From a virus: a stretch of DNA of 41,344 nucleotides. This document shows positions 18,282-33,909 of the stretch, piece by piece (the first letter of the stretch is position 1; every line of letters starts with the position of its first letter). The notes below the pieces were generated by a model. It did no database searches. It was not told the DNA's origin and worked only from the letters and a program-made list of their open reading frames with translations. Both the position numbers and the translations under genes were made by a program. The DNA lies in IMG/VR virus record IMGVR_UViG_3300034198_008491, positions 1 through 41,344 of that record, one strand, 5' to 3'.

Positions 18282-18537
18282 AGGCACACCTTTTCAGTTT
18301 GTGTCGTCGCACGGAGAAGTCCGAAATCACATAACCACGGTTGGTCAACACGGTGGCGATCACCGTGGCCTTGATGTTCGGATTATCCAGTGCGGCTACC
18401 AAGTCGTCTTTGTCCTGCTCAGACAGTTCTGACAGAACCAGCCAAACAGAGCATTTGACCCTATTCGGACCCTTGCTGTTCTCACGGTCGATCTCCTCAA
18501 GAAGACCTTCACGCTTCGATGTGTTCGCCATCGTCAT
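18265..18537 (-). CDS. Small HTH-type DNA-binding protein (90 aa)
   Basis: ATG 18537 overlaps the TerL stop by four bases. A second ATG at 18531 is better spaced from AGGGG, so either may be used. The layout 'KCSVWLVLSELSEQDKDDLVAALDNPNIKATVIATVLTNRGYVISDFSVRRHKLKRC' (in pieces over 28-84) is a helix-turn-helix plan found in small actinophage proteins: a short helix, a helix-turn-helix, a recognition helix after 'SDFSVRRH', and a Cys-containing end. A DNA-binding or terminase-accessory role is possible. No direct evidence for either. Confidence 0.7.
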   Translation of the reverse strand: MTMANTSKREGLLEEIDRENSKGPNRVKCSVWLVLSELSEQDKDDLVAALDNPNIKATVIATVLTNRGYVISDFSVRRHKLKRCACGRIK

Positions 18538-20120
18538 CCCCTAAAGAAAGGACTGTCGTATACTTCAACTGTTGGAACCGTCTCGTGAATTGTACACGCA
18601 CAGGCTAACGCCAAACTGTCAACATAGTCATCGTGAGCCTCTCGCTCATTCTCCGGTGCCTGTACGAGCATATATTGCCCCTTCATCACCTTTTCTACGT
18701 CAGTCATCTGCTGCCTGAAACGCCTCCAAACACGCGTTCGACGGGCTTTGGAATGGCCGGGGTATACGATCAGTCCTCGCTGTAACAGCGCAATAAGGTG
18801 CTTCCAGCGCTCCGCTTGGTTCTTGGAGTCACTGTTGTACGGAATGACCTCGCACCGGCCCGAAAAAAGGCGCTTCAGACGGTCGGCTACTGCGGACCCC
18901 ATGCCCTGTGCGTCCACGCCGATGTAGAGAATGTTGTACTGATCAAGGAATTCCATGATCTGGAAGTACTGCTCCTCCCATTCGGCGTTGTGAATCTCCA
19001 GCCAGTTGAGGATGCGGTGCTCACGGAAGCCAGCCGCATCCGTGTAATCCCAGTCCACCCATAGCACGGTTACAACCGTCGAATCTCGCACACGGGCTGG
19101 GTCAATACCGACCACGACCGGCGTTCTCCACCACGACCGGACAAGTTGCATGGAGGGGTCACCGAGACGATCAAGGTCGTCTTCGGTGATCAACATTCCT
19201 CGCTCAATCATCCATTTGAGGTTGTAGGACATCTGGAATTCTTCCGAGTCCTCACCTAGACGCAGTTTCTCCTTTTCGATGAACTTTGCGTAGGAGGCGT
19301 TGTACTTGCCGACCGTCTTGTAGTCGTACTCAAAGTGATTCTGGCGCTTTCTGGACTGAGAGCCACGGCGCTTGTTCAACTGGATTGCCTTGTAGAAGTC
19401 GCCAGTGTGATATGCCGGGGTCCCGATCTTCACGATGGTGCCTGCATAGGCGGCAAGCATGGGGTGGACGGACTTACGGATGACTTGGTCATCTGCGGCC
19501 TGAGCCTCGTCAACAACGATGATGTGGTACGACGAACCCTCAATCTTGGCTCTAGGGTTGGCGGTCTGCCGTCGGCACATCGAACCCGATTTGAGACTGA
19601 TCATCTTGGACCGACCGTCAGGCCGCTCATCGATTTCTGGGTCCTTGAAGATTTCTACCGCACGGTCTGAGGTCAGGCGCTTGACGATACGACCGAACAC
19701 GATCTCGCTCTGATCGTCCACTGGCGCAAAAACACCAACCCAGAGGCCACGGTTGAACCTTTCCAGCATCGGGAACGACTGCGCCAACTTGGGAAGCACC
19801 ACCATGCATCCTGCGAGCACCGTGGCGAGCGTCTCGCTCTTACCGGACTGACGTGCCCAAAGGGCTGTGATCTCTTCAGCGTCATTGATTACCAATGATT
19901 CGATAAGGCGATATGCCAGTTGACGCTGATATGGGCGCAGTTCAAAACCAGCAAGTTCTTCGCAGAAGACGATGATCCGCTTGATCAACTGGTCAACGAA
20001 ATCCGCATCCTCTTCAGATAGTTCCATTTCCGGTTCGTCATCAAACGGTTGACTCTCGTCAGGACTCTCGTCCCACACGGAATCTTCTGGATATCCCAAA
20101 TCTTCGATCATTTCAGACAC
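18534..20120 (-). CDS. terL: Terminase large subunit, ATPase and nuclease (528 aa)
   Basis: GTG start at 20120 with AGAGGA about eight bases upstream. Residues 1-40 are acidic. The ATPase has a Q-motif-like 'FELRPYQRQL' (59-68), Walker A 'RQSGKSE' (90-96), Walker B 'IIVVDEAQ' (200-207) and the coupling motif 'GTP' (233-235). The nuclease half has Asp340 in 'VVGIDPARVRDS', Asp403 in 'IGVDAQG' and Asp498/Asp501 in 'HDDYVDSLAL', the RNase H-like acidic triad. It cuts concatemeric DNA and pumps it into the capsid through the portal. No small terminase is obvious. The 20613 HTH protein is the best candidate by position. Confidence 0.95.
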   Translation of the reverse strand: MSEMIEDLGYPEDSVWDESPDESQPFDDEPEMELSEEDADFVDQLIKRIIVFCEELAGFELRPYQRQLAYRLIESLVINDAEEITALWARQSGKSETLATVLAGCMVVLPKLAQSFPMLERFNRGLWVGVFAPVDDQSEIVFGRIVKRLTSDRAVEIFKDPEIDERPDGRSKMISLKSGSMCRRQTANPRAKIEGSSYHIIVVDEAQAADDQVIRKSVHPMLAAYAGTIVKIGTPAYHTGDFYKAIQLNKRRGSQSRKRQNHFEYDYKTVGKYNASYAKFIEKEKLRLGEDSEEFQMSYNLKWMIERGMLITEDDLDRLGDPSMQLVRSWWRTPVVVGIDPARVRDSTVVTVLWVDWDYTDAAGFREHRILNWLEIHNAEWEEQYFQIMEFLDQYNILYIGVDAQGMGSAVADRLKRLFSGRCEVIPYNSDSKNQAERWKHLIALLQRGLIVYPGHSKARRTRVWRRFRQQMTDVEKVMKGQYMLVQAPENEREAHDDYVDSLALACACTIHETVPTVEVYDSPFFRG

Positions 20121-22326: not shown

Positions 22327-22836
22327 ATGGATCCGCAATTTGAAAAGGGTTTCATAGCCAAGGTTGAGCAGGACGAGGACACCGAGAAGTACCGATTGGT
22401 GCTGAACTGGTATGACCACGACGCTGTTGACGAGGTTGTTCTTCCACAGGAGTTTGACTCTCTGGAGGAAGCGATGGTCAGTGCGAACCACATCAGCAAT
22501 GACGTGATCCAGAGTTGGGGTGATCTGGAGGACTTTGATAGCCCTGACGATGCGGATATTGACGGCATCCCACAGGCGCTCGCAATCCTCCTGAAGTTTG
22601 CCAAAGAGTACAAGAACGTCGATATTCAGGGAATCAAACGCACCCATATTCCAGAGGAACTACTGGAGGCATTCGGGGACATCTCCGATGACTACATTTC
22701 TGGACTCCTGTTCGGCTTACCGATGGCGGTAGCGGCTCTTCCCTATCTAGACGATACGAATCTGGGCGAACTGAAGTATCTGGGTTGCCTCGCCAGCCTG
22801 CTGCAAGGGCTTCTCGCCCTTCGCAAAGCGGGATAA
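22327..22836 (+). CDS. Acidic helical protein (169 aa), plus strand
   Basis: ATG 22327 preceded by TACACT and seven bases. The N-terminal 60 residues are strongly acidic with a beta start ('LVLNWYDHDAVDEVVLPQEF'). The C-terminal part is helical and hydrophobic ('SGLLFGLPMAVAALPYL', 'LKYLGCLASLLQGLLALRKAG'). This tail could be membrane-associated, though its helices are short and mixed. No family recognised. It precedes the tRNA by eight bases and may share a transcript. Confidence 0.65.
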   Translation: MDPQFEKGFIAKVEQDEDTEKYRLVLNWYDHDAVDEVVLPQEFDSLEEAMVSANHISNDVIQSWGDLEDFDSPDDADIDGIPQALAILLKFAKEYKNVDIQGIKRTHIPEELLEAFGDISDDYISGLLFGLPMAVAALPYLDDTNLGELKYLGCLASLLQGLLALRKAG

Positions 22837-22844
22837 GACTTCCT

Positions 22845-22926
22845 GCCCGAATGGCGAAATAGGCAAACGCAGGGGACTTAAAATCCCCCGTCTAACGACT
22901 TGTGGGTTCGATCCCCACTTCGGGCA
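22845..22926 (+). tRNA. tRNA-Leu (UAA anticodon)
   Basis: An 82-base cloverleaf: acceptor GCCCGAA/TTCGGGC, D-arm GGCGAAATAGGCAAACGC region, anticodon stem GGGGA/TCCCC around CTTAAAA (anticodon TAA), a variable arm of about 13 bases, and T-arm GTGGG-TTCGATC-CCCAC. The discriminator base is A and CCA is not encoded. It reads UUA, a rare codon in high-GC actinobacteria (in Streptomyces the host gene bldA supplies this function). It may support TTA codons in the AT-richer phage genes. Confidence 0.95.
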
Positions 22927-22930
22927 CTGA

Positions 22931-23557
22931 CTACCGTGGGTTCAGATCGTCTGGATAACCAGCGTCTGCCCAGCCCTTGTACAGAATTCCTAAGCGATCT
23001 ACCTTGTGCTTGTCAAAGATGTACGACAAGTTGCCGGGAGTCTCCAAGTGATTGACAAACGGGATGACGGCGTTAAGCCTGACGGCATCCATGCGCTGCG
23101 CAGGGAGTGCAGAGAATAGATCGTGGTGTTCCTGACCCGGAGGTGGTCCTACGTGTTCAACCTGACGACCGTATGCCATACTCATATCGTCTGCATACGT
23201 AACTGGAAGTATTGAGCGCTTGGGGATCAAGTACTGGTGCCAGTACTTGCGTTCAGGCCAACTTTCAAGCGTCTTAATATGTGGTGCCGTAAAGATAGTT
23301 CGGTGTGAGCCGACGTAGTCGTGAATATGTCCACCTGTGTACTCAAGACCCATGTTGGCAGCAATCCGAGGATCGTTTAACGCCTCATGGAACTTTGTGC
23401 CCGGTGCCTCGTTCAGACGGCTTTCCTGCTCAATACCAAAGCCTGCGTCGTATGCTCCTGAATAAGTACTCAGGTGTGGTGCCATTTTGCGATCTGAGGC
23501 ATGCCAAGTAGTAATCCACTCGTCCCTAGTGGGAGCGGCAACATGTAAGCGTCTCAT
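22931..23557 (-). CDS. Probable ADP-ribosyltransferase-like protein (208 aa)
   Basis: ATG 23557 adjoins the upstream stop (TAAATG). The N-terminus has 'TTWHASDRKMAPHLS' followed by 'GAYDAGFGI', and the C-terminal half has 'VIPFVNHLETPGNLSYIFDKHKVD' (about 165-188). These correspond to the YH-x-S, H-x-G-x-x-A and 'YVNEVE..SYIV' type lines of phage ART-like proteins as I recall them; catalytic His in the first motif and Glu in 'HLE' are candidates. ARTs transfer ADP-ribose from NAD+ to proteins. The substrate is unknown. Convergent with the tRNA across only four bases. Confidence 0.5.
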   Translation of the reverse strand: MRRLHVAAPTRDEWITTWHASDRKMAPHLSTYSGAYDAGFGIEQESRLNEAPGTKFHEALNDPRIAANMGLEYTGGHIHDYVGSHRTIFTAPHIKTLESWPERKYWHQYLIPKRSILPVTYADDMSMAYGRQVEHVGPPPGQEHHDLFSALPAQRMDAVRLNAVIPFVNHLETPGNLSYIFDKHKVDRLGILYKGWADAGYPDDLNPR

Positions 23558-24106
23558 TTACCGATTTCTCTTGAAGTCAAACTGTGGCTTATTTGGATCT
23601 CCCAAATCCATCTTGACGACACCTTCGCCGGGATGCATACGGCTGATCAGCGGTTCTGCGGCGATGTATACCGGAATATGCACTCCTTGACGCATTGCTG
23701 CAACTGCTCGGTGGTGTCCGTCAAGAACAAGGTTTCTGTCAAGACCGATACCACCGATATTGTGTTTAGTCTGCGCAGCGATAACAGGCCGTAATACACC
23801 GTGCCTAAGCACTGACTGCTCTAAGTCTCTCATCTTGTAATCAATATTGCCGTTCAGTTGGTCGTCTGTAAGGTTATGCCAGTCAAACTCATGCTGCGTT
23901 GGAGCAAAGTGGTTCTTAAATTCTAAGGGATGAAGGATGTTATGAGCACGAACCCAAATCTTGTCGCCGTGGTTCCAGAGCGGTGCCACAACTGCGCGAC
24001 GGTTGTTTTGCAATGAATAGTTAAAACGCTCCATATGCTGGGTATCACGCTTGGTAAGGCGGCTATCAAGAGGCACACCGCCGCTACGTGTGTTTAAGTA
24101 GACCAT
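23558..24106 (-). CDS. ParB/Srx-type domain protein (182 aa)
   Basis: ATG 24106 with AAGG eight bases upstream. The core has 'LEQSVLRHGVLRPVIAA' (about 95-111), 'LDRNLVLDGHHRAVAAMRQGVHIPVYIA' (about 122-149). This is the ParB N-terminal pattern with the 'DGHHR' nucleotide-binding loop. Such domains occur in ParB CTPases, in phage nucleases and in toxin proteins. No DNA-binding HTH follows, so it is probably not a partition protein. It is placed among ART- and protease-like genes in one operon. Confidence 0.75.
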   Translation of the reverse strand: MVYLNTRSGGVPLDSRLTKRDTQHMERFNYSLQNNRRAVVAPLWNHGDKIWVRAHNILHPLEFKNHFAPTQHEFDWHNLTDDQLNGNIDYKMRDLEQSVLRHGVLRPVIAAQTKHNIGGIGLDRNLVLDGHHRAVAAMRQGVHIPVYIAAEPLISRMHPGEGVVKMDLGDPNKPQFDFKRNR

Positions 24107-24117
24107 ATGAGTACCTT

Positions 24118-24654
24118 CTAAACCTTCCTAGAGCGTCGAATAGCATTTCTTACCCATAATCTAGCATCTTTTAATTCATCTTTAGAAACAGGTTGAGTAG
24201 TGTCCATAAGATAACTAACATCTGCAACGCCTCTACCATGTACGTAACTTGACGGCCACTCTGGATTGTACCCAAGATTATTTTCTTGCCATTCCGATGG
24301 GTCCCTATCGGGAAGAATAAGTCCGGCCTTAATGGCTCTTTCCACTAAGGGTCTACTGTTGCTAGACAGACTACTTGAGTGGGTAATTGGACCTAAATCC
24401 TTGTACCTATTAAACAATAGTCCCAAAACCGTAGGGACATGAGTTCCGTGAGCCAGCGAACGGTCAGCCATGAGATAGTGAACCACAAGAGGATCGTGCT
24501 CACTAACACTATTGCCGCTATCGGTTTCTGACTCAAGGTCAATCGTAGGGTGATACTCACCAACGTAATCAGTATAAACAGGAGTTTTGCTTACTGCGAA
24601 AAACTGTGATCCACTCCTGTTGTATAAGTGGCGCTGTCTATACTCAATAGTCAT
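24118..24654 (-). CDS. Paralog family A member (178 aa)
   Basis: ATG 24654 overlaps the upstream stop by four bases. The N-terminus 'YRQRHLYNRSGSQFFAVSKTP' resembles 'MIRYLRRR...YAAIGRP' of the other three members (29507, 30226, 31588). The centre 'GTHVPTVLGLLFNRYKDLGPITHSSSLSSNSRPLVERAIKAGLILPDRDP' (in pieces, 90-140) aligns with their 'PTLLAMAH...LS..SSRLA..G...GL..PN' segment. It is the shortest and most diverged member and lacks the AHPNMR motif. Function unknown. Confidence 0.6.
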   Translation of the reverse strand: MTIEYRQRHLYNRSGSQFFAVSKTPVYTDYVGEYHPTIDLESETDSGNSVSEHDPLVVHYLMADRSLAHGTHVPTVLGLLFNRYKDLGPITHSSSLSSNSRPLVERAIKAGLILPDRDPSEWQENNLGYNPEWPSSYVHGRGVADVSYLMDTTQPVSKDELKDARLWVRNAIRRSRKV

Positions 24655-25343
24655 TTTTCATCCCAAGGCACTTCAGAAATAGTCCAACCGTCATCTGTAA
24701 CTTTAGTACTTGTATTCCTATGGCGACGCTGCATCTTACGGATGTGCTTGGTGTGATCACTCTCATGTACACCAACCCAGTCATTAGGCAACGGTGTAGG
24801 TAACGGCTTACGAGCATTAACATGCATCAAGTTAAAAGCAGGCGACGGTACCAGCAGCGACAATCGGGAATAGGAACCGGGATGGATCCATTTAGGTACC
24901 TCTACATCGTTTTGGTACGCAATGGTCTTGTTAGCGCCCAGTGCCTCTACGGCCTCGTCAACCTCTTCGGACTCCCAGTCAGGGATATTTCTACGGTTTG
25001 ATGACGAAATTGCCGTCTTGGTAGGAACGCTGAATCCGTGGCGTTGAAGCATTACCTTCTGTGCAGCGTTTGCGGTCCAATCGGTAAACACGTTTGGGTG
25101 AACCTCAACGTGGTCAGCAAACTGTAAGGGGTTACTCCGGTACCCCTTTTCAAGGGAATGCTTCATGTATCGGGAAGTTTCTTCATAGCCAACGTGCAAA
25201 AGGGGAGCATGGATGAACGTGCGGTACGGGCGATCAGAGACGTGGTACACACGCTCCTTGGGCAGGTACTCAAATTCAGTGTCATCCCAAGGTTCCTTGA
25301 AATATTGGAAACTTTCGGCAGTTCGGCGCAGGCTAATAGGCAT
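24651..25343 (-). CDS. Probable ADP-ribosyltransferase-like protein (230 aa)
   Basis: ATG 25343 is chosen for GAGGA seven bases upstream; an ORF start 11 codons earlier overlaps the metallopeptidase gene. It has 'RVYHVSDRPYRTF' (about 30-42), 'LLHVGYEETSRYMK' (about 47-60), then 'HPNVFTDWTANAAQKVMLQRHGF' and 'KTIAYQNDVEVPKWIHPGSYSRLSLL'. These match, as I recall it, the phage ART layout (YH-x-S, H-x-G-x-x-x-S, 'NP..l.D' and 'YxNevE...SY'). The Glu in 'NDVEV' is a candidate catalytic residue. Fold assignment needs a profile search. Confidence 0.5.
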   Translation of the reverse strand: MPISLRRTAESFQYFKEPWDDTEFEYLPKERVYHVSDRPYRTFIHAPLLHVGYEETSRYMKHSLEKGYRSNPLQFADHVEVHPNVFTDWTANAAQKVMLQRHGFSVPTKTAISSSNRRNIPDWESEEVDEAVEALGANKTIAYQNDVEVPKWIHPGSYSRLSLLVPSPAFNLMHVNARKPLPTPLPNDWVGVHESDHTKHIRKMQRRHRNTSTKVTDDGWTISEVPWDEK

Positions 25344-25354
25344 ATGAGAGTCCT

Positions 25355-26839
25355 CTACAGGTTGTGCTTGTCCCAAAGTTTGTCAACGCTGTTGCGCGCC
25401 TTTTCTGCGTGCTCTTCCTTCAGACCCTTAGGAAGTTCGGGAGCGGGACCCATACCAGCACGGTGACGTGCGTATGCCTCCGCATATACCTTCTTTTCCT
25501 TATGAACAAGTTTTCCAAGCCACTCATGGACGACAGGATGTAGTTCTCCAGATACAGCACGTTCCTGAGCAGTACTTGCCTGCTGATCACGGTTCAGTTT
25601 GTCAATGTGAGCCTTGACAAGCCTTCCGTGAAGCGGACTGACACCCCAATCCGTAACTGGCCTGTTGTTCCTGCGCTCAGTCCTGAGAATATCCGCTTGA
25701 TGTTCTCTCCAAATAATAGTGTCTTTATATGACTTTTCTGAATTAATACCGGCAGCAAGCGCCTCTCCACGAGGAGAACGCTCCGGTGTGCCTGTGGGGG
25801 TACCACCGAACTGATCTGTCTCTGGCACAAGATCGGGGAACATGGACAACTGAACACGCTCACCATCAATAGCCTTCATGCGTGTACGCCACTCATCACG
25901 GTGTGGGTGTTCGCCAGTCACAGGATCGGGATGAGAAATAGCGTGCATCAACATCCGCTGCGCTGCACCGATATCTGTGGCGATATCCCGCTTACCGTCA
26001 ACAAGGTCACTCTTCAAGACACCAGCCAGCCGTGCGGCTCCGTGAGCAGTTGAGTCAGGAACTACCTTGCCAGAAGAGAAGGTTTCTGCACGAGCCTGCT
26101 CAAATAGTTGCGGCCCAAGTGCAGAATGGGTTGAGAAGTATTCAGGACGGTAAGCCCACTGTCCTTTACCATTGGTGTGAAGTAGACGATAGCCTTCAGC
26201 ACTACCTTCTGCTACTGGAAGTGACATGTCGTGGATGGGAATAGACTCAAGTTCTGACAGTCCACCACCGGCCCGATAACGGGCTGCAAGTTGCTTGGAT
26301 ACATCAGAATGCGGATCAAGCGCTACACCCAACCTTGCCGACTTATCATTCTCAAGCATTTCGTGGCGGCCAAGGTCGTTCTGGAGCGAGTGCGCTGACT
26401 CGTGGACCAAAGCGCCACGCTTGTCATCCATAGAATCAAGCCTGCCAGCCTTATACCTAATGTTTTTACGGGCTGGATCGTACTGACCACCAGTATTTCT
26501 TCCTAATTCATGTGCTCCGTAGAAACGCATATAGTCTGAATCAGACTCACTGGCTACACGTACACCGGCTTCCTTGATATCTGCAAGAGGCATAGTGCTG
26601 CCAGCAATAGCGTCCCTAACCTCGTTAGTTGGACCCATGCGCCCACTTTGAGCGTCATGCTTGTCAACCCATTCACCAATTTTTGATCTACCAATAGCAG
26701 CGTCATACCCATAGTGACTCTCAACAACACTTTTACGGGTCTGGGACGGGGTCATCAGCCCCTCTAGGGGCAGCACGTATTGGCCGTTGTCCTCCATATG
26801 AGGCTCATCGCCGCCGCCACGCCTTCTGCTAACGACCAT
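25355..26839 (-). CDS. HExxH zinc metallopeptidase-like protein (494 aa)
   Basis: ATG 26839 overlaps an upstream TAA in a TAATG junction. 'ALVHESAHSLQNDL' contains HESAH (146-150) and 'VAEGSAEGYRLL' (about 209-220) supplies a downstream Glu, the gluzincin-type zinc ligand plan (HExxH plus Glu). The rest is polar, long and charged with helical segments and a Lys/Glu-rich end. 'VQLSMF' (about 329-334) resembles a clamp-binding motif, which may be chance. No signal peptide. It could process phage proteins, act on the host, or be carried in the virion. Confidence 0.65.
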   Translation of the reverse strand: MVVSRRRGGGDEPHMEDNGQYVLPLEGLMTPSQTRKSVVESHYGYDAAIGRSKIGEWVDKHDAQSGRMGPTNEVRDAIAGSTMPLADIKEAGVRVASESDSDYMRFYGAHELGRNTGGQYDPARKNIRYKAGRLDSMDDKRGALVHESAHSLQNDLGRHEMLENDKSARLGVALDPHSDVSKQLAARYRAGGGLSELESIPIHDMSLPVAEGSAEGYRLLHTNGKGQWAYRPEYFSTHSALGPQLFEQARAETFSSGKVVPDSTAHGAARLAGVLKSDLVDGKRDIATDIGAAQRMLMHAISHPDPVTGEHPHRDEWRTRMKAIDGERVQLSMFPDLVPETDQFGGTPTGTPERSPRGEALAAGINSEKSYKDTIIWREHQADILRTERRNNRPVTDWGVSPLHGRLVKAHIDKLNRDQQASTAQERAVSGELHPVVHEWLGKLVHKEKKVYAEAYARHRAGMGPAPELPKGLKEEHAEKARNSVDKLWDKHNL

Positions 26840-26911
26840 TAGAATCTCGTGTTTCCGGTAGACGAGTGACCTGCTGAGTTGTTACTCGTGTTGGGTAATT
26901 CGTATACGACG

Positions 26912-27133
26912 TTAGATCCGTCTACTAATGACGCCACTAAGGAACGACCTGACACGACCCTTGGGGATCTCGGGTCGGGGGATTCCGTGAGGGGATGCCC
27001 AGTCTTCACCTTCCTCCTTGGAAGGGCGCTGACCAGAGCCTTCTGGATACGCACCCTTAGGAAATGGGCGAGGAATGGGACCGGCGTGGTCGGCTTCCGT
27101 GTAAACATCATCATTGTCCCGATTATTAGTCAT
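26912..27133 (-). CDS. Small Pro/Glu-rich protein (73 aa)
   Basis: ATG 27133, leaderless by appearance: TATCAT ends seven bases upstream and no Shine-Dalgarno exists. The product is disordered-looking and rich in Pro, Gly, Glu and Arg ('PIPRPFPKGAYPEGSG', 'EEGEDWASPHGIPRPEIPKG'), ending 'SFLSGVISRRI'. An overlapping second frame ends at 26839 in TAATG with the next gene. No function is evident. Confidence 0.55.
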   Translation of the reverse strand: MTNNRDNDDVYTEADHAGPIPRPFPKGAYPEGSGQRPSKEEGEDWASPHGIPRPEIPKGRVRSFLSGVISRRI

Positions 27134-27140
27134 GGTTTAT

Positions 27141-27146
27141 ATGATA
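27141..27146 (-). promoter_or_regulatory. Candidate leaderless -10 box for the 27133 gene
   Basis: On the minus strand TATCAT lies seven bases before the ATG at 27133 and directly after the stop of the gene at 27147. No ribosome site is seen. Confidence 0.35.
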
Positions 27147-27770
27147 TCAGTAGTCTGTGTGGCTGTTGTGTGCTCGCCTGAATTGATAGTTACGGCCAGC
27201 AAAATGCCCAGATACGGACGAACTTCCGCTCAGATCGTGCCAAATACTCCGTATAGAGGATGGATCTGTAGTGCGTAATTCTTCTGCATTTGTAGCCTTA
27301 GTATCTGGATCTAAGTGAATTTTTCCAGATCTAAGTTGTTCATTAATATCACTATGATGCTTAGAAACCAAATCATGTAGGTGCTCTGGACCTTCATACT
27401 TAAAGTCGTCAACATCTTTAAGCGAGTTAAAGTTAGTAAGCGGAATACCACCCTGCTCTACACCGAAATGAGTGAGTCCCCAACCGTACAGGTTTGAACG
27501 ATCTCGCTCCCTCTGCATAAGTTCTACATGGGTTAGAGCGCCAGACTCGTGTGGGAACTGTAATACTAAAGAGTTAGTAATACTGCCGTGCGGACTGTCT
27601 GATGTCCAAAAATCGGGACGGTTAGCCCATCGGTCAAAATGGGGTACGGCAGGCAACCGCTTACCGCCAAGCGCTGCGTACGTCCCCCCCAGTTCAATAC
27701 CAGCCTTTTCCTGCAAATTCAGGAAATGCTGTCGGAATTGATGAGAATCAAATGCTTCAGGTGTGGGCAT
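27147..27770 (-). CDS. Paralog family B member (207 aa)
   Basis: ATG 27770 has AGGAG six bases upstream. It shares with 28776, 32333 and 32973: an N-terminal 'F+.HF.NL....GI.LG' helix (here 12-29), a Leu/Gly turn 'LGGKRLPAVPHFDRW', then 'LQFPHESGALTHVEL' (about 89-103) matching 'IPHETG..T.L', and a late 'HLHDLVSKHHSDINEQLRSGKI' matching 'LRALLG.HF..+NE.+R'. The order is beta/helix mixed, with conserved P-H-E-S/T-G in the middle. No known family. Confidence 0.6.
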   Translation of the reverse strand: MPTPEAFDSHQFRQHFLNLQEKAGIELGGTYAALGGKRLPAVPHFDRWANRPDFWTSDSPHGSITNSLVLQFPHESGALTHVELMQRERDRSNLYGWGLTHFGVEQGGIPLTNFNSLKDVDDFKYEGPEHLHDLVSKHHSDINEQLRSGKIHLDPDTKATNAEELRTTDPSSIRSIWHDLSGSSSVSGHFAGRNYQFRRAHNSHTDY

Positions 27771-27772
27771 GT

Positions 27773-27919
27773 CTAACTCCTACCACCGGGGCGGTTTCTG
27801 GGCGATATTAAAAGCGTTATTGGGTCCACTGATTCTTCCAAATACACGGCGTACGCCACGGGATCCACCTGACCATGCTGTCTGAACCGGTTAGGGTCAA
27901 AATCCTTGTGGACGCTCAT
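27773..27919 (-). CDS. Small protein of 48 aa
   Basis: ATG 27917-27919 directly follows the stop of the metallopeptidase gene at 27920 (TAAATG), and the gene ends three bases before the next. The product starts MSVHKDFDPNRFRQHG, then 'VDPVAYAVYLEES' and a basic 'SPRNRPGGRS' end. Tight packing and clean frame support it as real. Function unknown. Confidence 0.55.
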   Translation of the reverse strand: MSVHKDFDPNRFRQHGQVDPVAYAVYLEESVDPITLLISPRNRPGGRS

Positions 27920-28741
27920 TTACATGCCCTCCAAATCCAGTTTTAACTGGTTTTCATCTACTCCACGCTTACGCCGTTTACCGGCAGTAGAGGTGAGTGC
28001 GTGTTCGATACGGTCATAGTTGGCTAGAGGAATGTTGCCGGTACGGTTGACGTGGCTACGAGCGAGAGAGTAAAGCCGTTGCATTTCTGGAGACTTCTCT
28101 TTAAACAGTTTCGGATATCCAGAAACGCTCATACCCTTAGGTATTCCGCTGTAGCGGTCGGCGTAGCCGTCTGCAATCCCTTCCACAATAGGATCAGCCG
28201 TTCCACCCTTGAACTCAACACCACGCTGCTTATCGTCGTTTGCGGATTCCATGTGTTCCCAATACTGGGGATGTGACTGCCAATGCTTGGCATGACCAAT
28301 TTCGTGAGCCATTGTCCGTTGCCAAATATGGGCTTTATTAGGATTCACTAAATCTGTGTAGTTGACAACAATGCGCCCAGATAAACCATTACCAATTGTT
28401 CCGAACGCAGCGCTTGCGTCGTAATCCTTCTTTAGGGCGATCTTCATATCCATATCGTTGAGGTCGGCAAGATGCTGAAGAGGAATTTTCGACGCAATAA
28501 TCGGCATAGCAGCCCGTGCGTACAACTTCCCTAACGCTTTGCGCATATCTGGGGAAGCGCTTTCTGGCATCTCGGGGAACAACTTTGCCGTGAGATCAAT
28601 ACGACGATTGGCGCTAATCGGGTCATCGATCATGCCGGTACCGGTATTAGGGTGGAACAACTGGCCCCTACCCTGCTTATCCCAATAAAAACCGTGCTCG
28701 TCCGGTGTGGGTTCCTCGTCGTAATGTGCCTCTTCAGTCAC
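27920..28741 (-). CDS. Second HExxH zinc metallopeptidase-like protein (273 aa)
   Basis: GTG start at 28741 with only a weak upstream ribosome site (AAGAAG). 'RTMAHEIGHAKHWQSH' contains HEIGH at residues 146-150, the same position as in the 25355 protein, and 'IVEGIADGYADRYSGIP' (about 185-201) gives the downstream Glu. The shared E-G-x-A-x-G-Y line suggests the two are diverged relatives. The C-terminus ends 'QLKLDLEGM', matching a short tail seen elsewhere in this island. Zinc peptidase of the gluzincin type is likely. Target unknown. Confidence 0.7.
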   Translation of the reverse strand: MTEEAHYDEEPTPDEHGFYWDKQGRGQLFHPNTGTGMIDDPISANRRIDLTAKLFPEMPESASPDMRKALGKLYARAAMPIIASKIPLQHLADLNDMDMKIALKKDYDASAAFGTIGNGLSGRIVVNYTDLVNPNKAHIWQRTMAHEIGHAKHWQSHPQYWEHMESANDDKQRGVEFKGGTADPIVEGIADGYADRYSGIPKGMSVSGYPKLFKEKSPEMQRLYSLARSHVNRTGNIPLANYDRIEHALTSTAGKRRKRGVDENQLKLDLEGM

Positions 28742-28775
28742 GATCTATCTTCTTTCCCATACCGTTCCCTAGCCA

Positions 28776-29435
28776 TTATATATCAAGGTTTTTATCTTCA
28801 GTGAACTGGAACCGCTTACGTGGATCGAAATAACCATGCTTGGTATCTGCTATGTCGTCAATGTGCTTGCCAAGCACTATTCCACTTTTTCCAACACCAT
28901 ACGAGAAGTGGGAGCCAGTAATAATGGGAGGATTACTGCGTATTTGAGCACGTTTAAATAAACCAGTTTCAGTTACTTCGGGATCAACCTTTAATGATCC
29001 CCCCTTTAATCCTTGCCGTATCAAATTAATATGGTCTTGGATTGCGGCACCCAAATGATGTGGACCCTCCATTGGTATACGGTCATCATCGTAGCCCCGG
29101 TAAACCTGTTCTCCGTGCCGATCTTGAACGCCCCACGTAAAGGGTGGGGCCATCGTCCATGAGGGACGATTGGTGCCAATTCCTCTACCCTCCATTAACA
29201 TTTCCGTAACAAGACCGTTTTTATGGGCGAGATGAAAACCTAGGGTTTCTTCTTCTGGATTTGTTTCGTCATCTGAAAAATATCCGTAATCACCCGCTTC
29301 AATAGGGTAAAGGCGACCTCCCACTCGGACATGCCGTGGGGTACGGAAGTTTATGCCAGCCTCAACTTGAGCGCGAGTAAACAGGTGAGTCATATTTTCA
29401 GGGCTGTATGGCATCCCTCGTCTGGGTCCAAGCAT
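28776..29435 (-). CDS. Paralog family B member, most diverged (219 aa)
   Basis: The start is taken as ATG 29435, with GGAAG eight bases upstream. A GTG at 29444 would abut that site. N-terminus 'MTHLFTRAQVEAGINF' then 'RVGGRLYPIEAGDYGYF' corresponds to the family B lead. 'EGPHHLGAAIQDHINLIRQGLKGGSLKVDPE' matches the late helix of 27147. The middle 'HE(T/S)G' motif is replaced by 'AHKNGLVTEML', so it may have lost a function. C-terminus 'RFQFTEDKNLDI' resembles 'KFTEKN' ends of the other members. Confidence 0.55.
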   Translation of the reverse strand: MLGPRRGMPYSPENMTHLFTRAQVEAGINFRTPRHVRVGGRLYPIEAGDYGYFSDDETNPEEETLGFHLAHKNGLVTEMLMEGRGIGTNRPSWTMAPPFTWGVQDRHGEQVYRGYDDDRIPMEGPHHLGAAIQDHINLIRQGLKGGSLKVDPEVTETGLFKRAQIRSNPPIITGSHFSYGVGKSGIVLGKHIDDIADTKHGYFDPRKRFQFTEDKNLDI

Positions 29436-29462
29436 GTGAGTCACTTCCGATCAAATGAGGGA

Positions 29463-29497
29463 ACGGTACCAATCATTATACTGATGATTGGTACCGT
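29463..29497 (-). promoter_or_regulatory. Perfect 14-bp hairpin with TATAAT in the loop
   Basis: The arms 29463-29476 and 29484-29497 pair over 14 bases around a 7-base loop. On the minus strand TATAAT spans the loop and stem edge (29481-29476), about 40 bases before the start of the 28776 gene. No T-tract follows, so it is not a classic terminator. It could be a promoter with a palindromic operator, or an RNA processing hairpin. It begins nine bases after the stop of the gene at 29507. Confidence 0.6.
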
Positions 29498-29506
29498 ATG
29501 CAGGTA

Positions 29507-30226
29507 TTAGATGCCGGGAAGTCGCTCTCCAAAAAATGGGGCTAAATCGTGCTCCCTCTCCTTATCCCTGCCCAAAATCCTTCTTAAATGTGACTTAGCA
29601 AGGTGAAGATCGTTTTCTGGCACTGTGTGTTTGTCTAAATCAAACTTGACACCCATTATACTACCCAAATTATCAGCCGCTCGGTTATTGGTCCAATCCC
29701 ACCCCGGCATCCAAGTGGTAGATAACGTGTCGCTAAAATCGTGGTTGTTAATTTGTTCAGCGTGAACATTTCTGGGATTAGGAATAATAAGCCCACTCTG
29801 TAATCCACGCTTGGCTAGGCGGGAACTAAAGTGTGAGAGGTTTCGATCTGCTGTCAGGGGTGACAGTTCACGGTGTGCCATAGCCAACAACATGGGAACA
29901 GCATGCCGCATATTAGGGTGTGCGAACGCCGTAACGTAATTACCGGGCTTTACAGAAAACAATGTTTCTGGATCTGGGTAATCACCGTAACGTTCTTGGG
30001 CACCGTGGTCGTCAAACATCCATGAAGGCGATACTTCCATGCCGTGCTTGTCTCTGTTATAAAAATTAGTCCAGATATCTGGGTGCTCTACAGACACGAT
30101 TGCTGCATAGTGCCGAGCGAGAGTGTCACCCTCTAGCGGCTTTCCTATAGCGGCATATTCCGTAGTACCCCTAAGGATGCTTTCAGCATGGGGAGCGGGT
30201 TGGACGTTTCTCAAATATTTGATCAT
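29507..30226 (-). CDS. Paralog family A member (239 aa)
   Basis: ATG 30226 overlaps the upstream TAA (TAATG) with AAAGGGG before it. N-terminus 'MIKYLRN', then 'TEYAAIGKP' and 'YAAIVSVEHPDIW'. Core: 'AFAHPNMRHAVPMLLAMAHRELSPL' (in parts, about 110-134), 'LSHFSSRLAKRGLQSGLIIPNPRN' (about 140-162). C-terminus ends 'FFGERLPGI', with an LPG(I) tail like the 31588 member's LPGM. Compared with 30226 and 31588 it conserves all core motifs. No recognised domain; probably a host-interaction or virion protein. Confidence 0.65.
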   Translation of the reverse strand: MIKYLRNVQPAPHAESILRGTTEYAAIGKPLEGDTLARHYAAIVSVEHPDIWTNFYNRDKHGMEVSPSWMFDDHGAQERYGDYPDPETLFSVKPGNYVTAFAHPNMRHAVPMLLAMAHRELSPLTADRNLSHFSSRLAKRGLQSGLIIPNPRNVHAEQINNHDFSDTLSTTWMPGWDWTNNRAADNLGSIMGVKFDLDKHTVPENDLHLAKSHLRRILGRDKEREHDLAPFFGERLPGI

Positions 30227-30927
30227 TACTGACCCCTTTTACGGTGTTCAGAGATAATAGAGCGCAAATGGTGTCGGGCCGCTGCCACTTCTATCGATGG
30301 AACACGGTCCTCAATTGGATGGAATGACCTACCGGTAACAACGCCCCTGCTGGTATCCAACAACCCATGCTCTTTCCGCAGTTCAGGCGGCTCGTAGACG
30401 ATGTTGCTCCAATTAGAGGCTGCTGTGGTATCTGCATACGGATTCTCTGGGTTCGGAACGACCAGCCCACGCTCCTGCCCCCACTTGGCTAAACGTGAAC
30501 TGTGCTTGGAAAGAATTTCGGATGGCTGAAGCATTCGGTGCTCCATATGGGCCATAGCGAGCAAAGTGGGCATCGTGTGGCGCATATTAGGATGTGCGTA
30601 TGCGCTAAGAATAGTTCCCGGTATATGCGTAAACAGCGTGTCAGGCTCTTCAAACTCCAGATCGTCAGGACTGCTCTCAGGAATAAGTCTCCGCAAATGC
30701 TCCCGATGTTCCCAAGAGTGAACAACAGACTGGTTCGATGACCAAGTGGCGTTTTCCCAGTTAGTGATGGAGGTCGGCGCAGATACCTGCAACAGTGCAG
30801 CGGGACGGTTACCGGTACCGTATGTGCCATCATGCTGGCGTACCCCACGATTACTGACTGCCGCATACCAAGACGAGGCCGTACCGTGCTTGGCGCTACC
30901 TGTCCGGTTTCTTAAATACATAGTCAC
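30226..30927 (-). CDS. Paralog family A member (233 aa)
   Basis: Start GTG 30927 is preferred because AAGGA lies six bases upstream; ATG 30921 is possible. Starts 'TMYLRNRTGSAKHG', then 'WYAAVSNRG', 'AYAHPNMRHTMPTLLAMAHMEHRML' (about 129-153, in parts), 'LSKHSSRLAKWGQERGLVVPNPENP' (about 158-182) and an Arg-rich end. Stop and next start overlap (TAATG). Adjacent to its closest relative, 29507, suggesting tandem duplication. Confidence 0.65.
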   Translation of the reverse strand: MTMYLRNRTGSAKHGTASSWYAAVSNRGVRQHDGTYGTGNRPAALLQVSAPTSITNWENATWSSNQSVVHSWEHREHLRRLIPESSPDDLEFEEPDTLFTHIPGTILSAYAHPNMRHTMPTLLAMAHMEHRMLQPSEILSKHSSRLAKWGQERGLVVPNPENPYADTTAASNWSNIVYEPPELRKEHGLLDTSRGVVTGRSFHPIEDRVPSIEVAAARHHLRSIISEHRKRGQ

Positions 30928-31017
30928 GGTATGTCCTTTGCAAAAAAAATTTGATACACACACTGAGTGATGAAGCGCACTACTATCAGTCACAAAGAGT
31001 GAATATGTATACCCATA

Positions 31018-31587
31018 TTAGTGTATTGAACGCGGATCTACAAGAAACTCTTCTTCTGGACGACGACTCTTCCCAACAGTACGTGTACGTACACCGTGCT
31101 CCAGAAGCGATACCCCCCGTACCGAACCGGGTTCCTGTTTCCATACCCTGCCGGTAGGACCGCTGTACGACGGCTTTGCAAACGAGCGTGCTACGAACCT
31201 GTCGGTAGTAAACGACTGTGGATAATCGGGAGCAAGATCGGCCAGTTCCAGAGGTGAACGCTTGTCGCCACGGTACAATGGCAAGTCATTGGGCCTGCCG
31301 TGTATGCGCATGTTGGCATCAAAGGCAATAATGTTCTTGGCTACAGCATTCGGTTGCCCCACAAGGAATGACCGGTGGTCGGAAGCCCATCGCCGTAATT
31401 GGCGGTCAAACGGCTCTACCTTCAACTCTTCCATGTTTACGGGTCTATGCCACTTACCGTAGTACTCAGCAGCCTCGTCCGGTGACAACACTTGCCCCTC
31501 AGAATTACGCACATGACCGGTCAGTGCCTGTCCCAAAGACATTCCATGAAGTCTGGAGAACTGGTGGCTAAGAATAATGGGTTGCAT
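31018..31587 (-). CDS. ADP-ribosyltransferase, R-S-E type (189 aa)
   Basis: ATG 31587 adjoins the 31588 stop (TAAATG). The R-S-E ART triad is visible: Arg106 in 'LPLYRGD', Ser125 with following Thr127-Thr128 in 'PQSFTTDRFVARSFA', and 'EEEFLVDP' at 178-185 giving the ExE catalytic pair (Glu178, Glu180). 'VWKQEPG' lies between. The N-terminal 80 residues form a helical lead domain with 'WASDHRSFLVGQPNA'. R-S-E ARTs such as VIP2-like and Alt-like proteins modify arginine residues or actin-like and polymerase targets. The target here is unknown. Confidence 0.8.
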   Translation of the reverse strand: MQPIILSHQFSRLHGMSLGQALTGHVRNSEGQVLSPDEAAEYYGKWHRPVNMEELKVEPFDRQLRRWASDHRSFLVGQPNAVAKNIIAFDANMRIHGRPNDLPLYRGDKRSPLELADLAPDYPQSFTTDRFVARSFAKPSYSGPTGRVWKQEPGSVRGVSLLEHGVRTRTVGKSRRPEEEFLVDPRSIH

Positions 31588-32328
31588 TTAGCGCCACCAT
31601 TCCATACCGGGCAACGGGGTGCCGTGCGGCTTGGACTCCTCCTCAACGGGCTTGTTCCTGCGCAGCAGGTGCCTGAGGTGGTCCTTTGCGGCAAACACGT
31701 CTAGATCGGGCATCTTGTCATCCTCCCAGTCCCAATCGTCATTACCGATCATGCCACGAGCATTCGTGGGCTTATCGTTCTCATCATCCCATGACGGCGT
31801 CCACACACTGCTTGCCCAAGCGGAATCAAAGTTCAGGCCGTTAGTCGGGCGGTTGCTGGGGTTTGCCCTGTTTTGAACAATCAGACCCATGTCCATACCA
31901 CGCTGTGCCAAACGGGAACTGTAGATAGATAGACTGTTGGAAGGTTTGAGCATTCCAAAATCTCTGTGCGCAGCGGCCAACAGGGTCATAATGTGTGGGC
32001 GCATATTGGGATGGGCAAACGCCCTTTCGATAGTGCCCGGTTCGTGCCTGAACAACACGTCTGGGTCGTCTCGCATCTGATACGCATTGTTATGTGAATG
32101 TGCTTCACGCTCCGCATCCTCCCAGAGGGCTGAAGGTCGCTTTCCACCGCTATCAAATGCGGCATTGATCTTGGGGTGGTACACCTCTATGGTTGCAGCC
32201 TCACGGGTCGGAAAACGGTGACCAACCGTGTCCTCTGTGGGGCGACCGATAGCGGCATAAACAGTCGCACCGTGCGGATTACCGGCCCAGTCACGGGTTG
32301 CCTCTCGCCGACGAAGATAACGGATCAT
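31588..32328 (-). CDS. Paralog family A member, longest (246 aa)
   Basis: Start ATG 32328 gives MIRYLRRRE, aligning with MIKYLRN of 29507. Further upstream ATGs overlap the 32333 gene. Motifs: 'TVYAAIGRP', 'AFAHPNMRPHIMTLLAAAHRDFGML' (in parts), 'LSIYSSRLAQRGMDMGLIVQNRANPSN' (in parts), then 'DVFAAKDHLRHLLRRN' and end 'HGTPLPGMEWWR'. Its stop abuts the ART start. Members vary most in the acidic segment after the core. Confidence 0.65.
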   Translation of the reverse strand: MIRYLRRREATRDWAGNPHGATVYAAIGRPTEDTVGHRFPTREAATIEVYHPKINAAFDSGGKRPSALWEDAEREAHSHNNAYQMRDDPDVLFRHEPGTIERAFAHPNMRPHIMTLLAAAHRDFGMLKPSNSLSIYSSRLAQRGMDMGLIVQNRANPSNRPTNGLNFDSAWASSVWTPSWDDENDKPTNARGMIGNDDWDWEDDKMPDLDVFAAKDHLRHLLRRNKPVEEESKPHGTPLPGMEWWR

Positions 32329-32332
32329 AGTC

Positions 32333-32983
32333 TCAGTTGACATCCTTCCATGTATGGTTCTTTTCGGTAAAGCGTGATCCCTTCCCGAGATCGAAGGAGC
32401 CATGTGCCAAGTTGGACCATAATCCGTACAAGGATCCATGAATAGTGTTCGGATTAGCATTTGCGTACTTGGTCTGCATACGTAACTGGAGTTCACCATA
32501 ATCAATAGGATTTTTATTTTTACGTAAGTGTTCGTCCACTGCATTGAAGTGCCTGCCTAGCAGCGCCCGTAGATGCACAGGGTTGTCGATAGTGAAGTCC
32601 GTAGAATCAATGGCTTGGTCCGTCTCACCCGTCATAGTAAATTTCAACGGGTTCACAACCGTACGGAGACGTACATGAGCCAGTCCCTCGTTCTCACGAA
32701 CATGATAAAGGGTCAGATCGGAACGCAGTCCGGTTTCGTGAGGGATCTGTACATGGAGCATTCCGTGCCGTGCCCCACCCGAGGCATAATCCTCACCGGG
32801 GGCGACCACTCTGTTGCGTTCCTGTTCTACGATATAGCGAGAGCCACCGGGAATGGTTGGGATATGAATACCACCGATATTCATGCGACGAGCGTCCATA
32901 TCGATGCCCAACTGGTTCCTGAAGGTCAACAGGTGACCCCTGAAACGGTCAGCAAAGTCACTTCTACGGGGATCAAGCACCAT
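32333..32983 (-). CDS. Paralog family B member (216 aa)
   Basis: ATG 32983 overlaps the previous gene by 11 bases, with GAGG seven bases upstream. It opens 'MVLDPRRSDFADRFRGH', identical at its first ten residues to the 32973 protein, and continues 'GIDMDARRMNIGGIHIPTIPG'. Core 'VQIPHETGLRSDLTLYHV' and 'LRALLGRHFNAVDEHLRKN' follow. A recent duplication of 32973 is likely from the identical start, though the bodies have diverged. Confidence 0.65.
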   Translation of the reverse strand: MVLDPRRSDFADRFRGHLLTFRNQLGIDMDARRMNIGGIHIPTIPGGSRYIVEQERNRVVAPGEDYASGGARHGMLHVQIPHETGLRSDLTLYHVRENEGLAHVRLRTVVNPLKFTMTGETDQAIDSTDFTIDNPVHLRALLGRHFNAVDEHLRKNKNPIDYGELQLRMQTKYANANPNTIHGSLYGLWSNLAHGSFDLGKGSRFTEKNHTWKDVN

Positions 32984-33623
32984 GCTCGTACCTCATTTTT
33001 TCAGTGAACTTCATGTTGTTCGTCATGTCAAATGTTCCCGTAACCAACTCACTGGGACCGAACGTCTTAGCACCTACGTTATGGACTCCCAGCGCCCTGC
33101 CACGATGAACACTGTCGGTGCTGAGGTCACGGATTCTTGCAATACGCTCATAATCCTCAGGTTCCTCACGGATGCGTTCGTTCAATGACTTGAAGTGTTC
33201 TCCCAGCAGCGCTCGCAGTGATTGTGCTGACGAATGAATGTCAAAAGCACTGCGATTATGTATAGTCGTGTCGATTGGCTTGACCCTATTACTCAGCGGA
33301 TAGGTGCTCGTATTCACACTGGCAAGGGCAGTACCCTCCTTGGGACGTACATGTCCGATGAGTAGGGCGGTACGGTGCCCCGTCTCGTGCGGAATCTCCA
33401 CGTTGTATTCCCCGTGATACGGAGTCCCAACCTCAATGCTCAGTGGTGTCTCTCTCCCACTGTTGTCAACATCGTAGTGGTGAGTACCAGAAATGATGGG
33501 AATACGATAATTACCCAGTCCTAGGTGCCGCTCCCCGATGTCCAGATCTAACATGTTCGTGAAATTGGTGAAATGTTCCCTGAACCTGTCAGGAAAGTCA
33601 CTCCGACGTGGATCTAGCACCAT
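32973..33623 (-). CDS. Paralog family B member, first gene of the island operon (216 aa)
   Basis: ATG 33623 has GGGAG six bases upstream. It starts 'MVLDPRRSDFPDRFREHF', then 'IGERHLGLGNYRIPIISGTH', 'VEIPHETGHRTALLIGHV' (about 84-101) and 'LRALLGEHFKSLNERIREE' (about 142-160), ending 'KFTEKMRYEHGA'. Its upstream region is the ~1 kb non-coding stretch, so any promoter for the island lies there. Function unknown. Confidence 0.65.
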   Translation of the reverse strand: MVLDPRRSDFPDRFREHFTNFTNMLDLDIGERHLGLGNYRIPIISGTHHYDVDNSGRETPLSIEVGTPYHGEYNVEIPHETGHRTALLIGHVRPKEGTALASVNTSTYPLSNRVKPIDTTIHNRSAFDIHSSAQSLRALLGEHFKSLNERIREEPEDYERIARIRDLSTDSVHRGRALGVHNVGAKTFGPSELVTGTFDMTNNMKFTEKMRYEHGA

Positions 33624-33669
33624 TTGTGTCTCCCAAAGCGGTATGCACGTATATCACCATATTAGCCGA

Positions 33670-33688
33670 CCGACCATTCCCGCAGACA
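33670..33688 (-). repeat. 19-bp repeat, copy 1 (inverted)
   Basis: Minus strand TGTCTGCGGGAATGGTCGG. It matches the copies at 33874, 33910 and 38722, and faces copy 2 across a 185-base AT-rich segment. Confidence 0.75.
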
Positions 33689-33873
33689 GGAAAGTTGCCG
33701 AAATTACCCTAAAAACACCCGGCATAGCCAAATATGGCTCAAAAACACCCGAAAATGCCCGAATATGCAAAAATCATAGGCTCTAAGGCACTATTTCTAG
33801 GATTTTCATAGAAATTGCTCATAGGGCACTACTTTGGTGCATTTTTCATATCGCCTATACACGTCCCCTAGGG

Positions 33874-33892: not shown

Positions 33893-33909
33893 ATCTTAAT
33901 GGTGGGGGG

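What the first reader, a model, noticed from the sequence alone, without database searches (positions are those of the whole stretch)
22931..33623. An 11-kb phage island of toxin-like enzymes and expanded unknown families
One minus-strand block holds an R-S-E ADP-ribosyltransferase, two further probable ART-like proteins, two HExxH metallopeptidase-like proteins, a ParB-like protein and eight members of two paralogous families. Such a concentration beside the terminase and head genes suggests a coordinated effector set, perhaps packaged in the virion or used in host takeover, as Alt and Mod ARTs are in T4. The grouping is seen in sequence; the purpose is inference.
Basis: partly seen in the sequence, partly recalled or inferred. 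Interest (0 to 1): 0.85.

Follow-up and report, generated by a model that had tools for sequence, protein, structure and literature searches.

The report
Phage effector island with shared tags
A virus, probably of actinobacteria, carries just upstream of its DNA-packaging gene a block of small toxin-like enzymes; related viruses carry different mixes of such enzymes, and there unrelated enzymes share short end-tags that look like a common delivery or docking signal.

Summary
The block is real: 14 minus-strand genes starting 2.8 kb upstream of terL. The window is a fragment of a phage related to Streptomyces phages BRock and LuckySocke; a 73-kb contig is the same phage. Confirmed: an R-S-E ART (31018-31587) whose relatives keep all three motifs, two HExxH proteins with relatives, a ParB-like protein, and two families of four. 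The two further 'ART-like' proteins are not established. Eight of 14 genes have relatives in islands of related phages. In those islands unrelated families share an N-terminal leader, [LI][SNGH]x(1,2)Q[FLW]: 61 of 200 proteins and 22 of 102 families, against 5 of 640 and 5 of 268 elsewhere; a held-out-family search also finds a leader. Peptidases and family A share a C-terminal QLxLF/QLPGM tag. The window keeps the tags only in part (leader 1 of 14, C-tag 3 of 14). Best reading: a modular set of accessory effectors sorted by terminal tags, most likely into the virion; the tags also resemble sliding-clamp-binding peptides. Delivery and function are untested.

The parts
31018..31587 (-). R-S-E ADP-ribosyltransferase-like protein, 189 aa; N-terminus carries the leader core LSHQF
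   Evidence: 37-38% identity to L078/L080/L087 proteins, invariant YRG, SFxxD, RRPExE; leader core; relatives in 7 contigs besides the same phage
27920..28741 (-). HExxH zincin-like peptidase, 273 aa; N-terminal GQLFHPNTGTG, C-terminal NQLKLDLEGM
   Evidence: HExxH, downstream EGxA motif and C-terminal Q conserved
25355..26839 (-). HExxH (HESAH...EGSAEGYRL) peptidase-like protein, 494 aa; QYVLPL near the N-terminus and QLSMF at residue 330
   Evidence: BLASTP E=2e-5 to L093 8393-9331; motif
23558..24106 (-). ParB-like protein, 182 aa, GHHR motif
29507..30226 (-). Family A protein, ends ERLPGI; possible GNAT-like fold
   Evidence: pLDDT 75; best VIA Z 5.6, RimI-type
30226..30921 (-). Family A protein (probable start at 30921)
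31588..32343 (-). Family A protein (probable start at 32343), ends PLPGMEWWR
24118..24654 (-). Family A protein, short divergent member
32973..33623 (-). Family B protein; fold not identified
   Evidence: pLDDT 60; no PDB match at E<=0.001
32333..32983 (-). Family B protein
28776..29444 (-). Family B protein, divergent
27147..27770 (-). Family B protein; N-terminus DSHQFRQHF resembles the leader but does not meet the core pattern
24651..25343 (-).
   Evidence: no relatives
22931..23557 (-).
   Evidence: no relatives
18534..20120 (-). Terminase large subunit, downstream of the island on the same strand

Best explanation
The block is the accessory-effector island of a phage, probably a myovirus of Actinobacteria. 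It holds stand-alone enzymes of the kinds found in polyvalent proteins (ART, HExxH peptidase, ParB-like, perhaps GNAT-like), encoded on the terL strand upstream of terL. I propose that they are made with the head proteins, that a short terminal peptide sorts them into the prohead in the way T4's capsid targeting sequence sorts Alt and the internal proteins, and that they enter the next host with the DNA to modify or cleave host proteins. Shown here: the island, its enzyme kinds by motif and homology, its turnover between related phages, and the shared leader across unrelated families in the relatives. Inferred: contractile tail and host (from relatives), late expression, packaging, injection, targets. 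In this window's own lineage the tag is reduced or changed.
For: Leader [LI][SNGH]x(1,2)Q[FLW] in the first 32 residues: 61 of 200 island proteins (22 of 102 families) against 5 of 640 (5 of 268 families) elsewhere in the phages examined, family-level Fisher p=1.9e-9. Without ParB-like proteins 41 of 169 against 5 of 636; in residues 33-64 only 5 of 200. De novo pattern choice with held-out families: 10 of 92 against 2 of 267, p=3.4e-5. The leader sits on ParB-like, GNAT, peptidase and, by motif, ART-like proteins. Codons at conserved leader positions differ within some genomes, so there the peptide rather than the DNA is kept. Of 20 carrier records, all 10 longer than 45 kb have a terL of the window's family and 9 of these 10 its major capsid protein; over all 20 the counts are 13 and 10, one of each (G028) by construction of the models. 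Leader or ParB-like island genes lie on the terL strand in 8 of 8 records read almost whole. Published: ARTs near head genes are predicted to be packaged (PMC9503650); a 10-20-residue N-terminal sequence directs T4 internal proteins and Alt into the head (PMC5694885).
Against: Only 1 of 14 window proteins has the leader core and 3 of 14 the C-tag. No virion data exist. I identified no prohead protease or cleavage site, and made no dedicated search for one. None of 34 LuckySocke and 31 BRock CDS around terL has the leader core; one BRock CDS of unknown function has QLRMF near its N-terminus. The island is directly upstream of terL in 4 of 8 records (G010, G014, G019, G024); in the other four it is so only if the contigs are circularly permuted. 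Seven of 96 island genes have a TATAAT-like box 5-9 nt before the start codon, against 2 of 527 elsewhere, which suits expression of single cassettes in the cell. The leader pattern was first seen by eye in these loci, and the island set was fetched with ParB-like and peptidase queries, one of which used a QLxxF pattern. A first motif model (EM) did not settle on the leader.
Confidence: 0.45

Rival explanations
1. The tags are sliding-clamp-binding peptides. The enzymes are made in the infected cell, bind host DnaN through QLxLF/QLxLxL/QLPGM peptides and act at replication forks on host repair, restriction or replication proteins.
For: The established clamp motif is Q-L-x-L-F, often C-terminal (PMC4549789, passages read); the mycobacterial ImuB clamp motif is QLPLWG (PMC10421592, passage read). 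Around terL, QLx[LM]F occurs in 6 of 77 non-redundant upstream proteins (0.09 expected by shuffling) and 2 of 60 downstream ones (0.08 expected); stricter-spelled variants together in 10 of 77 (0.58) and 4 of 60 (0.47); of those 4 downstream, 3 belong to the same effector families (the patterns were chosen). In the larger set QLx[LM]F is in 28 of 200 island proteins against 4 of 640 others, of which two are ParB-like and two look by eye like cell-wall enzymes. Two unrelated families end alike, QPQLPGMED and DPQLPGMED, in neighbouring genes. WhiB in 11 of 15 records points to actinobacterial hosts.
Against: Many leaders are QF without a clamp-like continuation. No phage DnaN was found, 0 of 8 records with PF02768, so the host's clamp would be needed. 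QLx[LM]F falls in only 3 island families. Binding cannot be tested here. In ParB-like proteins QLxMF may be part of the first strand.
Confidence: 0.25
2. Ordinary early host-takeover or anti-defence genes, made from host-type promoters and neither packaged nor clamp-bound; the leader serves something else such as stability or partner choice.
For: TATAAT-like boxes right before start codons in 7 of 96 island genes, all in G019 and G023, against 2 of 527; many small variable genes are typical of accessory regions (general knowledge).
Against: Does not explain why unrelated enzymes share a leader. The terL strand recurs in 8 of 8 records.
Confidence: 0.2
3. Toxins against eukaryotic grazers released when infected cells are eaten, as proposed for VIP2-like ARTs of freshwater phages.
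For: PMC6802176 (passages read) reports 24 freshwater phages with ART genes and proposes this role.
Against: The island also holds ParB-like and peptidase proteins, and GNATs in relatives, without a known role there; I noticed no secretion or cell-binding part, but made no dedicated search for one.
Confidence: 0.04
4. Degraded remains of multidomain polyvalent proteins.
For: Same domain kinds as in PMC5512222.
Against: Open frames with conserved motifs and relatives that are also single-domain genes.
Confidence: 0.03

Closest known systems
Polyvalent proteins of phages and conjugative elements (Iyer et al. 2017, PMC5512222; passages read, including part of the abstract)
   Same: ART, zincin-like peptidase, ParB-like and GNAT domains, near late virion genes, predicted to act early after entry; solo GNATs with late structural genes of mycobacteriophages are mentioned there
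   Different: Here each domain is its own gene in a variable island, and in the relatives unrelated genes share an end-tag; the word clamp does not occur in that text
Phage T4 Alt and internal proteins with the capsid targeting sequence (as described in PMC5694885; passages read)
   Same: Several unlike proteins, an ART among them, share a short N-terminal signal
   Different: No packaging or prohead cleavage has been shown here; many more families carry the leader; no sequence comparison with the T4 signal was made
ARTs near head genes in phages, above all myoviruses (PMC9503650; passages read)
   Same: Same gene place and same prediction of packaging
   Different: A leader shared with other enzymes was not in the passages I saw; 'targeting sequence' has 0 occurrences and the one 'leader' hit means a person (only 12 of 32 places shown)
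Beta sliding-clamp-binding motif QLxLF of transposases and polymerases (PMC4549789, PMC10421592; passages read)
   Same: Motif letters and terminal position
   Different: Found here on ART-like, ParB-like and peptidase proteins of phages; no binding data

Membership tests
Polyvalent proteins | Two or more domains in one polypeptide | tested here: not met
   14 separate genes of 178-494 aa; no protein with two recognised domains
Polyvalent proteins | Domain repertoire (ART, zincin, ParB-like, GNAT) | tested here: met
   in the window; GNAT only in relatives (PF00583 above cut-off for L081:5528-5965)
ART superfamily, R-S-E class | Conserved R, S and ExE | tested here: met
   4 of 4 sequences
ART superfamily, R-S-E class | Profile or structure match to a known ART | tested here: inconclusive
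   No Pfam, PHROG or PDB ART match; no structure was predicted
ParB-like (ParB/sulfiredoxin fold) | GxxR motif and profile match | tested here: met
   GHHR; PDB ParB 6t1f E=0.0054 with the family profile; PHROG ParB E=2e-4; Pfam ParB_N only below cut-off
Zincin-like metallopeptidases | HExxH with a conserved downstream acidic residue | tested here: met
   at motif level; Pfam peptidase matches only below cut-off; metal binding and activity not tested
GNAT acetyltransferases (family A) | GNAT fold | tested here: inconclusive
   VIA best Z 5.6, acetyltransferases mixed with metallo-beta-lactamases; Foldseek nothing at E<=0.001; profile comparison with island GNATs E=0.14
T4-type capsid targeting sequence | Short N-terminal sequence shared by unlike internal proteins | tested here: inconclusive
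   A shared N-terminal sequence is found in the relatives, in the window only in 1 of 14; that the proteins are internal to the head is unknown
T4-type capsid targeting sequence | Directs proteins into the prohead and is cleaved off | not testable with these tools
   Needs virion proteomics
Sliding-clamp-binding proteins | QLxLF-type motif | tested here: met
   in the window 25355 (QLSMF) and 27920 (QLKLDL)
Sliding-clamp-binding proteins | Binds DnaN | not testable with these tools
   Needs a binding assay

The most novel reading that the evidence does not exclude
These actinophages have a modular effector-delivery system: any enzyme fused to a short terminal peptide (N-terminal D-x-L-S-x-x-Q-F/L, or C-terminal QLxLF/QLPGM) is loaded into the head, or docked on the host sliding clamp, so that new ART, peptidase, ParB-like or GNAT cassettes can be swapped in and out of one island.
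Probability: 0.4. Interest if true: 0.82.

Novelty: new variant of a known kind. Interest (0 to 1): 0.62.

Why it matters
Phage ARTs and other effectors near head genes are often predicted to be virion cargo from gene place alone. A peptide shared by unrelated effectors makes this testable: it predicts which proteins go together, gives a mutation to make, and would allow effectors of unknown fold to be found by their tag. If the tag instead binds the sliding clamp, it shows phages steering modifying enzymes to the replication fork. Either way it turns a list of unknown genes in environmental actinophages into a set with one handle.

Tried and rejected
Streptomyces phages as direct models: none of the 34 LuckySocke and 31 BRock CDS around terL that I translated has the leader core; one BRock CDS has QLRMF. 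Their remaining CDS were not read. No match by tblastn in 50,697 phage records for eight island proteins (at E 0.01; at E 0.1); a ninth, the ParB-like L094 10553, gave only weak matches.

Xanthomonas 'putative head protein' as a head-fused ParB-like domain: it is a MuF protein without the GHHR motif, so the E=0.4 match was taken as chance.

Family A as GNAT by sequence: not supported. Family B as GNAT or as relative of family A: not supported; its model is poor (pLDDT 60) and Foldseek found no match at E<=0.001. (ParB profile against the window protein) is circular, because the profile contains that protein, and is not used.

Motif by expectation maximisation: unstable, different consensus in each fold, 7 of 92 held-out families above the 98th percentile against 1.84 expected, and six of those seven lack the leader. 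It was replaced by pattern enumeration with held-out families. Families were made by BLASTP on residues after 40 plus regex merging, so distant homologues may still be split. The null was only 20 label shuffles (best 6.6e-6 against 1.2e-7 observed). C-tag at family level: 4 of 102 against 3 of 268, p=0.095, not significant. Genome-wide leader count: 34 of 1,088 ORFs against 8.3 expected by shuffling, almost all in the stretches already seen.

ART relatives in bacterial genomes: none. ParB-like in bacterial genomes: one contig, labelled Kiritimatiellia MAG, not followed. Sigma-70 and terminator scans of 20000-34000: 11 found against 14.6 and 10 against 11.6 in shuffles. Repeats: only short, mostly diverged copies (no shuffle control).

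Rows set aside: opposite-strand ORFs of seven genomes and all ORFs under 85 aa were left out; all G010 ORFs were counted as outside although G010 has an island; near-identical phages inflate the protein counts, so the family counts are the safer ones. Eleven families occur on both sides; ten of them were dropped from the island side and the ParB family from the outside. In one search genes of some loci were treated as separate families, so some of its 68 pairs are within one family.

Papers: in the listings and passages of searches I saw no description of this leader; the library holds only open-licence papers and I read passages, no whole paper.
Full report
What the window is. The record is a 41,344-base virus contig. 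Its terL is 45-47% identical to that of Streptomyces phages BRock and LuckySocke, 112-115-kb phages annotated with a tail sheath; that the window's phage has a contractile tail is inferred from this. Contig IMGVR_UViG_3300032282_002092 (73,457 bases) is the same phage, 99.99% identical over 21.6 kb around terL, identical at window 1-7892 and matching window 30000-41344 at 100%; it ends at the window's right end. WhiB, an actinobacterial marker, is in 11 of 15 records examined; the window, its 73-kb twin, G002 and G018 have none.

The observation. Fourteen minus-strand genes fill 22931-33623. The ART 31018-31587 has relatives in seven other contigs; in an alignment of four, YRG, SFxxD and RRPExE are invariant. 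This is motif evidence: no Pfam, PHROG or PDB search returned an ART. Peptidase-like 27920 belongs to a family with HExxH and a downstream EGxA(D/G)GxxDR. Peptidase-like 25355 is related to an island peptidase of contig G023, E=2e-5, with EGxAEGYRL shared. 23558 is ParB-like. Family A and family B have four members each. The ART label of 22931 rests on a weak hint and that of 24651 on nothing I found.

Relatives. Iterative searches show relatives of 23558, the four family A members, 27920 and the ART in islands of related phages, plus 25355: 8 of 14. Family B, 22931 and 24651 were found only here among the sequences searched. Family A occurs in 5 of 15 records searched, four copies here and one or two in the others (its model contains members from these records). 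So the block as such is not conserved; an island of changing content is. Of 20 carrier records, all 10 longer than 45 kb have a terL of this family and 9 of those 10 its major capsid protein. Island genes lie on the terL strand in 8 of 8 records read almost whole; they are directly upstream of terL, by about 10-27 kb, in four (G010, G014, G019, G024) and would be upstream in the other four only if those contigs are circularly permuted. In BRock and LuckySocke a tRNA array lies upstream of terL.

The tags. In the relatives many island proteins begin alike, e.g. MSAEDNLSYEQLAMF (ParB-like), MSAQDNLSQQLFHGS (ART-like by motif only), MASSEHLSQQF (aligned with GNATs), MALGKQF (peptidase). The core [LI][SNGH]x(1,2)Q[FLW] lies in the first 32 residues of 61 of 200 island proteins and 5 of 640 others; by family 22 of 102 and 5 of 268, p=1.9e-9. 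One of the 22 families looks like a tail-type protein that fell inside a fetched locus. The pattern was first seen by eye in these loci, so I ran a blind test: patterns were enumerated, the best chosen on training families and scored on held-out families: 10 of 92 against 2 of 267, p=3.4e-5; the chosen patterns were [DE]xx[SNGH]xxQ in three folds and [SNGH][DE][SNGH]x[SNGH] in two, both of which cover the same D-N-L-S stretch. An earlier attempt with an EM model failed. The core is confined to the N-terminus: 61 of 200 in residues 1-32, 5 of 200 in 33-64, 1 of 178 in 65-96. Leader DNA is only slightly more alike than the gene body (0.64 against 0.58 mean identity, 68 pairs), and synonymous codons differ at several leader positions though not in every genome, which speaks for selection on the peptide.

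A second tag is C-terminal: QPQLPGMED, EQLKLPGI, PEQLNLFD, NQLKLDLEGM. It occurs in 14 of 200 island proteins and 3 of 640 others, against 0.56 expected by shuffling, but in only 4 families, mainly peptidases and family A, and the family-level test is not significant (p=0.095). The terminal Q is an invariant column in 7 of 7 aligned peptidases.

In the window itself only the ART has the leader core, 27147 comes near it (DSHQF), and 27920, 29507 and 31588 have C-tags. The tag system is thus a property of the wider group, seen here in reduced form. This limits how far it explains the given block.

Mechanism. Three readings fit. First, a packaging leader: unlike enzymes, one of them an ART, share a short N-terminal signal and sit near head genes, as T4 Alt and internal proteins do (PMC5694885; PMC9503650). 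Second, clamp docking: QLxLF is the published clamp consensus (PMC4549789) and QLPLWG is the clamp motif of mycobacterial ImuB (PMC10421592); QLx[LM]F is found in 28 of 200 island proteins and 4 of 640 others, and no phage clamp was found in 8 records, so the partner would be the host's. Third, plain early expression: island genes of two genomes have a TATAAT-like box 5-9 nt before the start, 7 of 96 against 2 of 527 over seven genomes. I give these 0.45, 0.25 and 0.2. N-terminal leader and C-terminal tag may also do different things.

Folds. Family A was predicted at pLDDT 75. Foldseek found nothing at E<=0.001; VIA put a RimI-type acetyltransferase first at Z 5.6, but metallo-beta-lactamases scored alike. 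Family B was predicted at pLDDT 60 with no match at E<=0.001. Neither is settled.

Novelty. The enzyme kinds and their place are a known theme (polyvalent proteins and their solo forms, PMC5512222; head-linked ARTs, PMC9503650). The island form with a leader shared by unrelated families is what I did not see in the searches named in Tried and rejected; I rate it a new variant of a known kind.

Noticed in passing
window 34000-41344: G+C jumps from about 0.50 to 0.61-0.67 at 34 kb while a helicase gene there (36755-38521) is conserved in related phages; the same stretch is in the 73-kb contig.
   Followed up: partly
window 41344 and end of contig IMGVR_UViG_3300032282_002092 (73457): Two contigs of the same phage end at the same base, which may be a physical genome end or a shared assembly limit.
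   Followed up: no
window about 35559-35606 and 40490-40537: 48-base inverted repeat, 90% identical, in the G+C-rich part.
   Followed up: no
window 13-974: Internal direct repeat of about 600 bases shifted by about 370 bases, 73% identical, with two long overlapping plus-strand frames.
   Followed up: no
window 22845-22927: Single tRNA-Leu(taa) on the plus strand at the island's edge, close to where BRock and LuckySocke have large tRNA arrays.
   Followed up: no
G019 and G023 islands: TATACT/TATAAT boxes 5-9 nt before start codons, suggesting leaderless single-gene transcripts.
   Followed up: partly
L073 5050, L074 5123, L075 7691, L083 4365: A second recurring N-terminus, MSRxx(x)FDxGH, on other small island proteins.
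   Followed up: no
L059: Another phage of the terL family has a HExxH protein with QGVLF and two proteins that look ART-like by motif between terL and portal; Pfam finds nothing in them.
   Followed up: partly
L017:3141-4004: Papain-like cysteine peptidase (Pfam C1 E=0.003, below cut-off) upstream of terL in another relative.
   Followed up: no
L028:570-851 (Streptomyces phage BRock): A 93-aa CDS of unknown function begins with a QLRMF motif.
   Followed up: no
L146: One relative of the tagged ParB-like family in a contig labelled Kiritimatiellia MAG.
   Followed up: no
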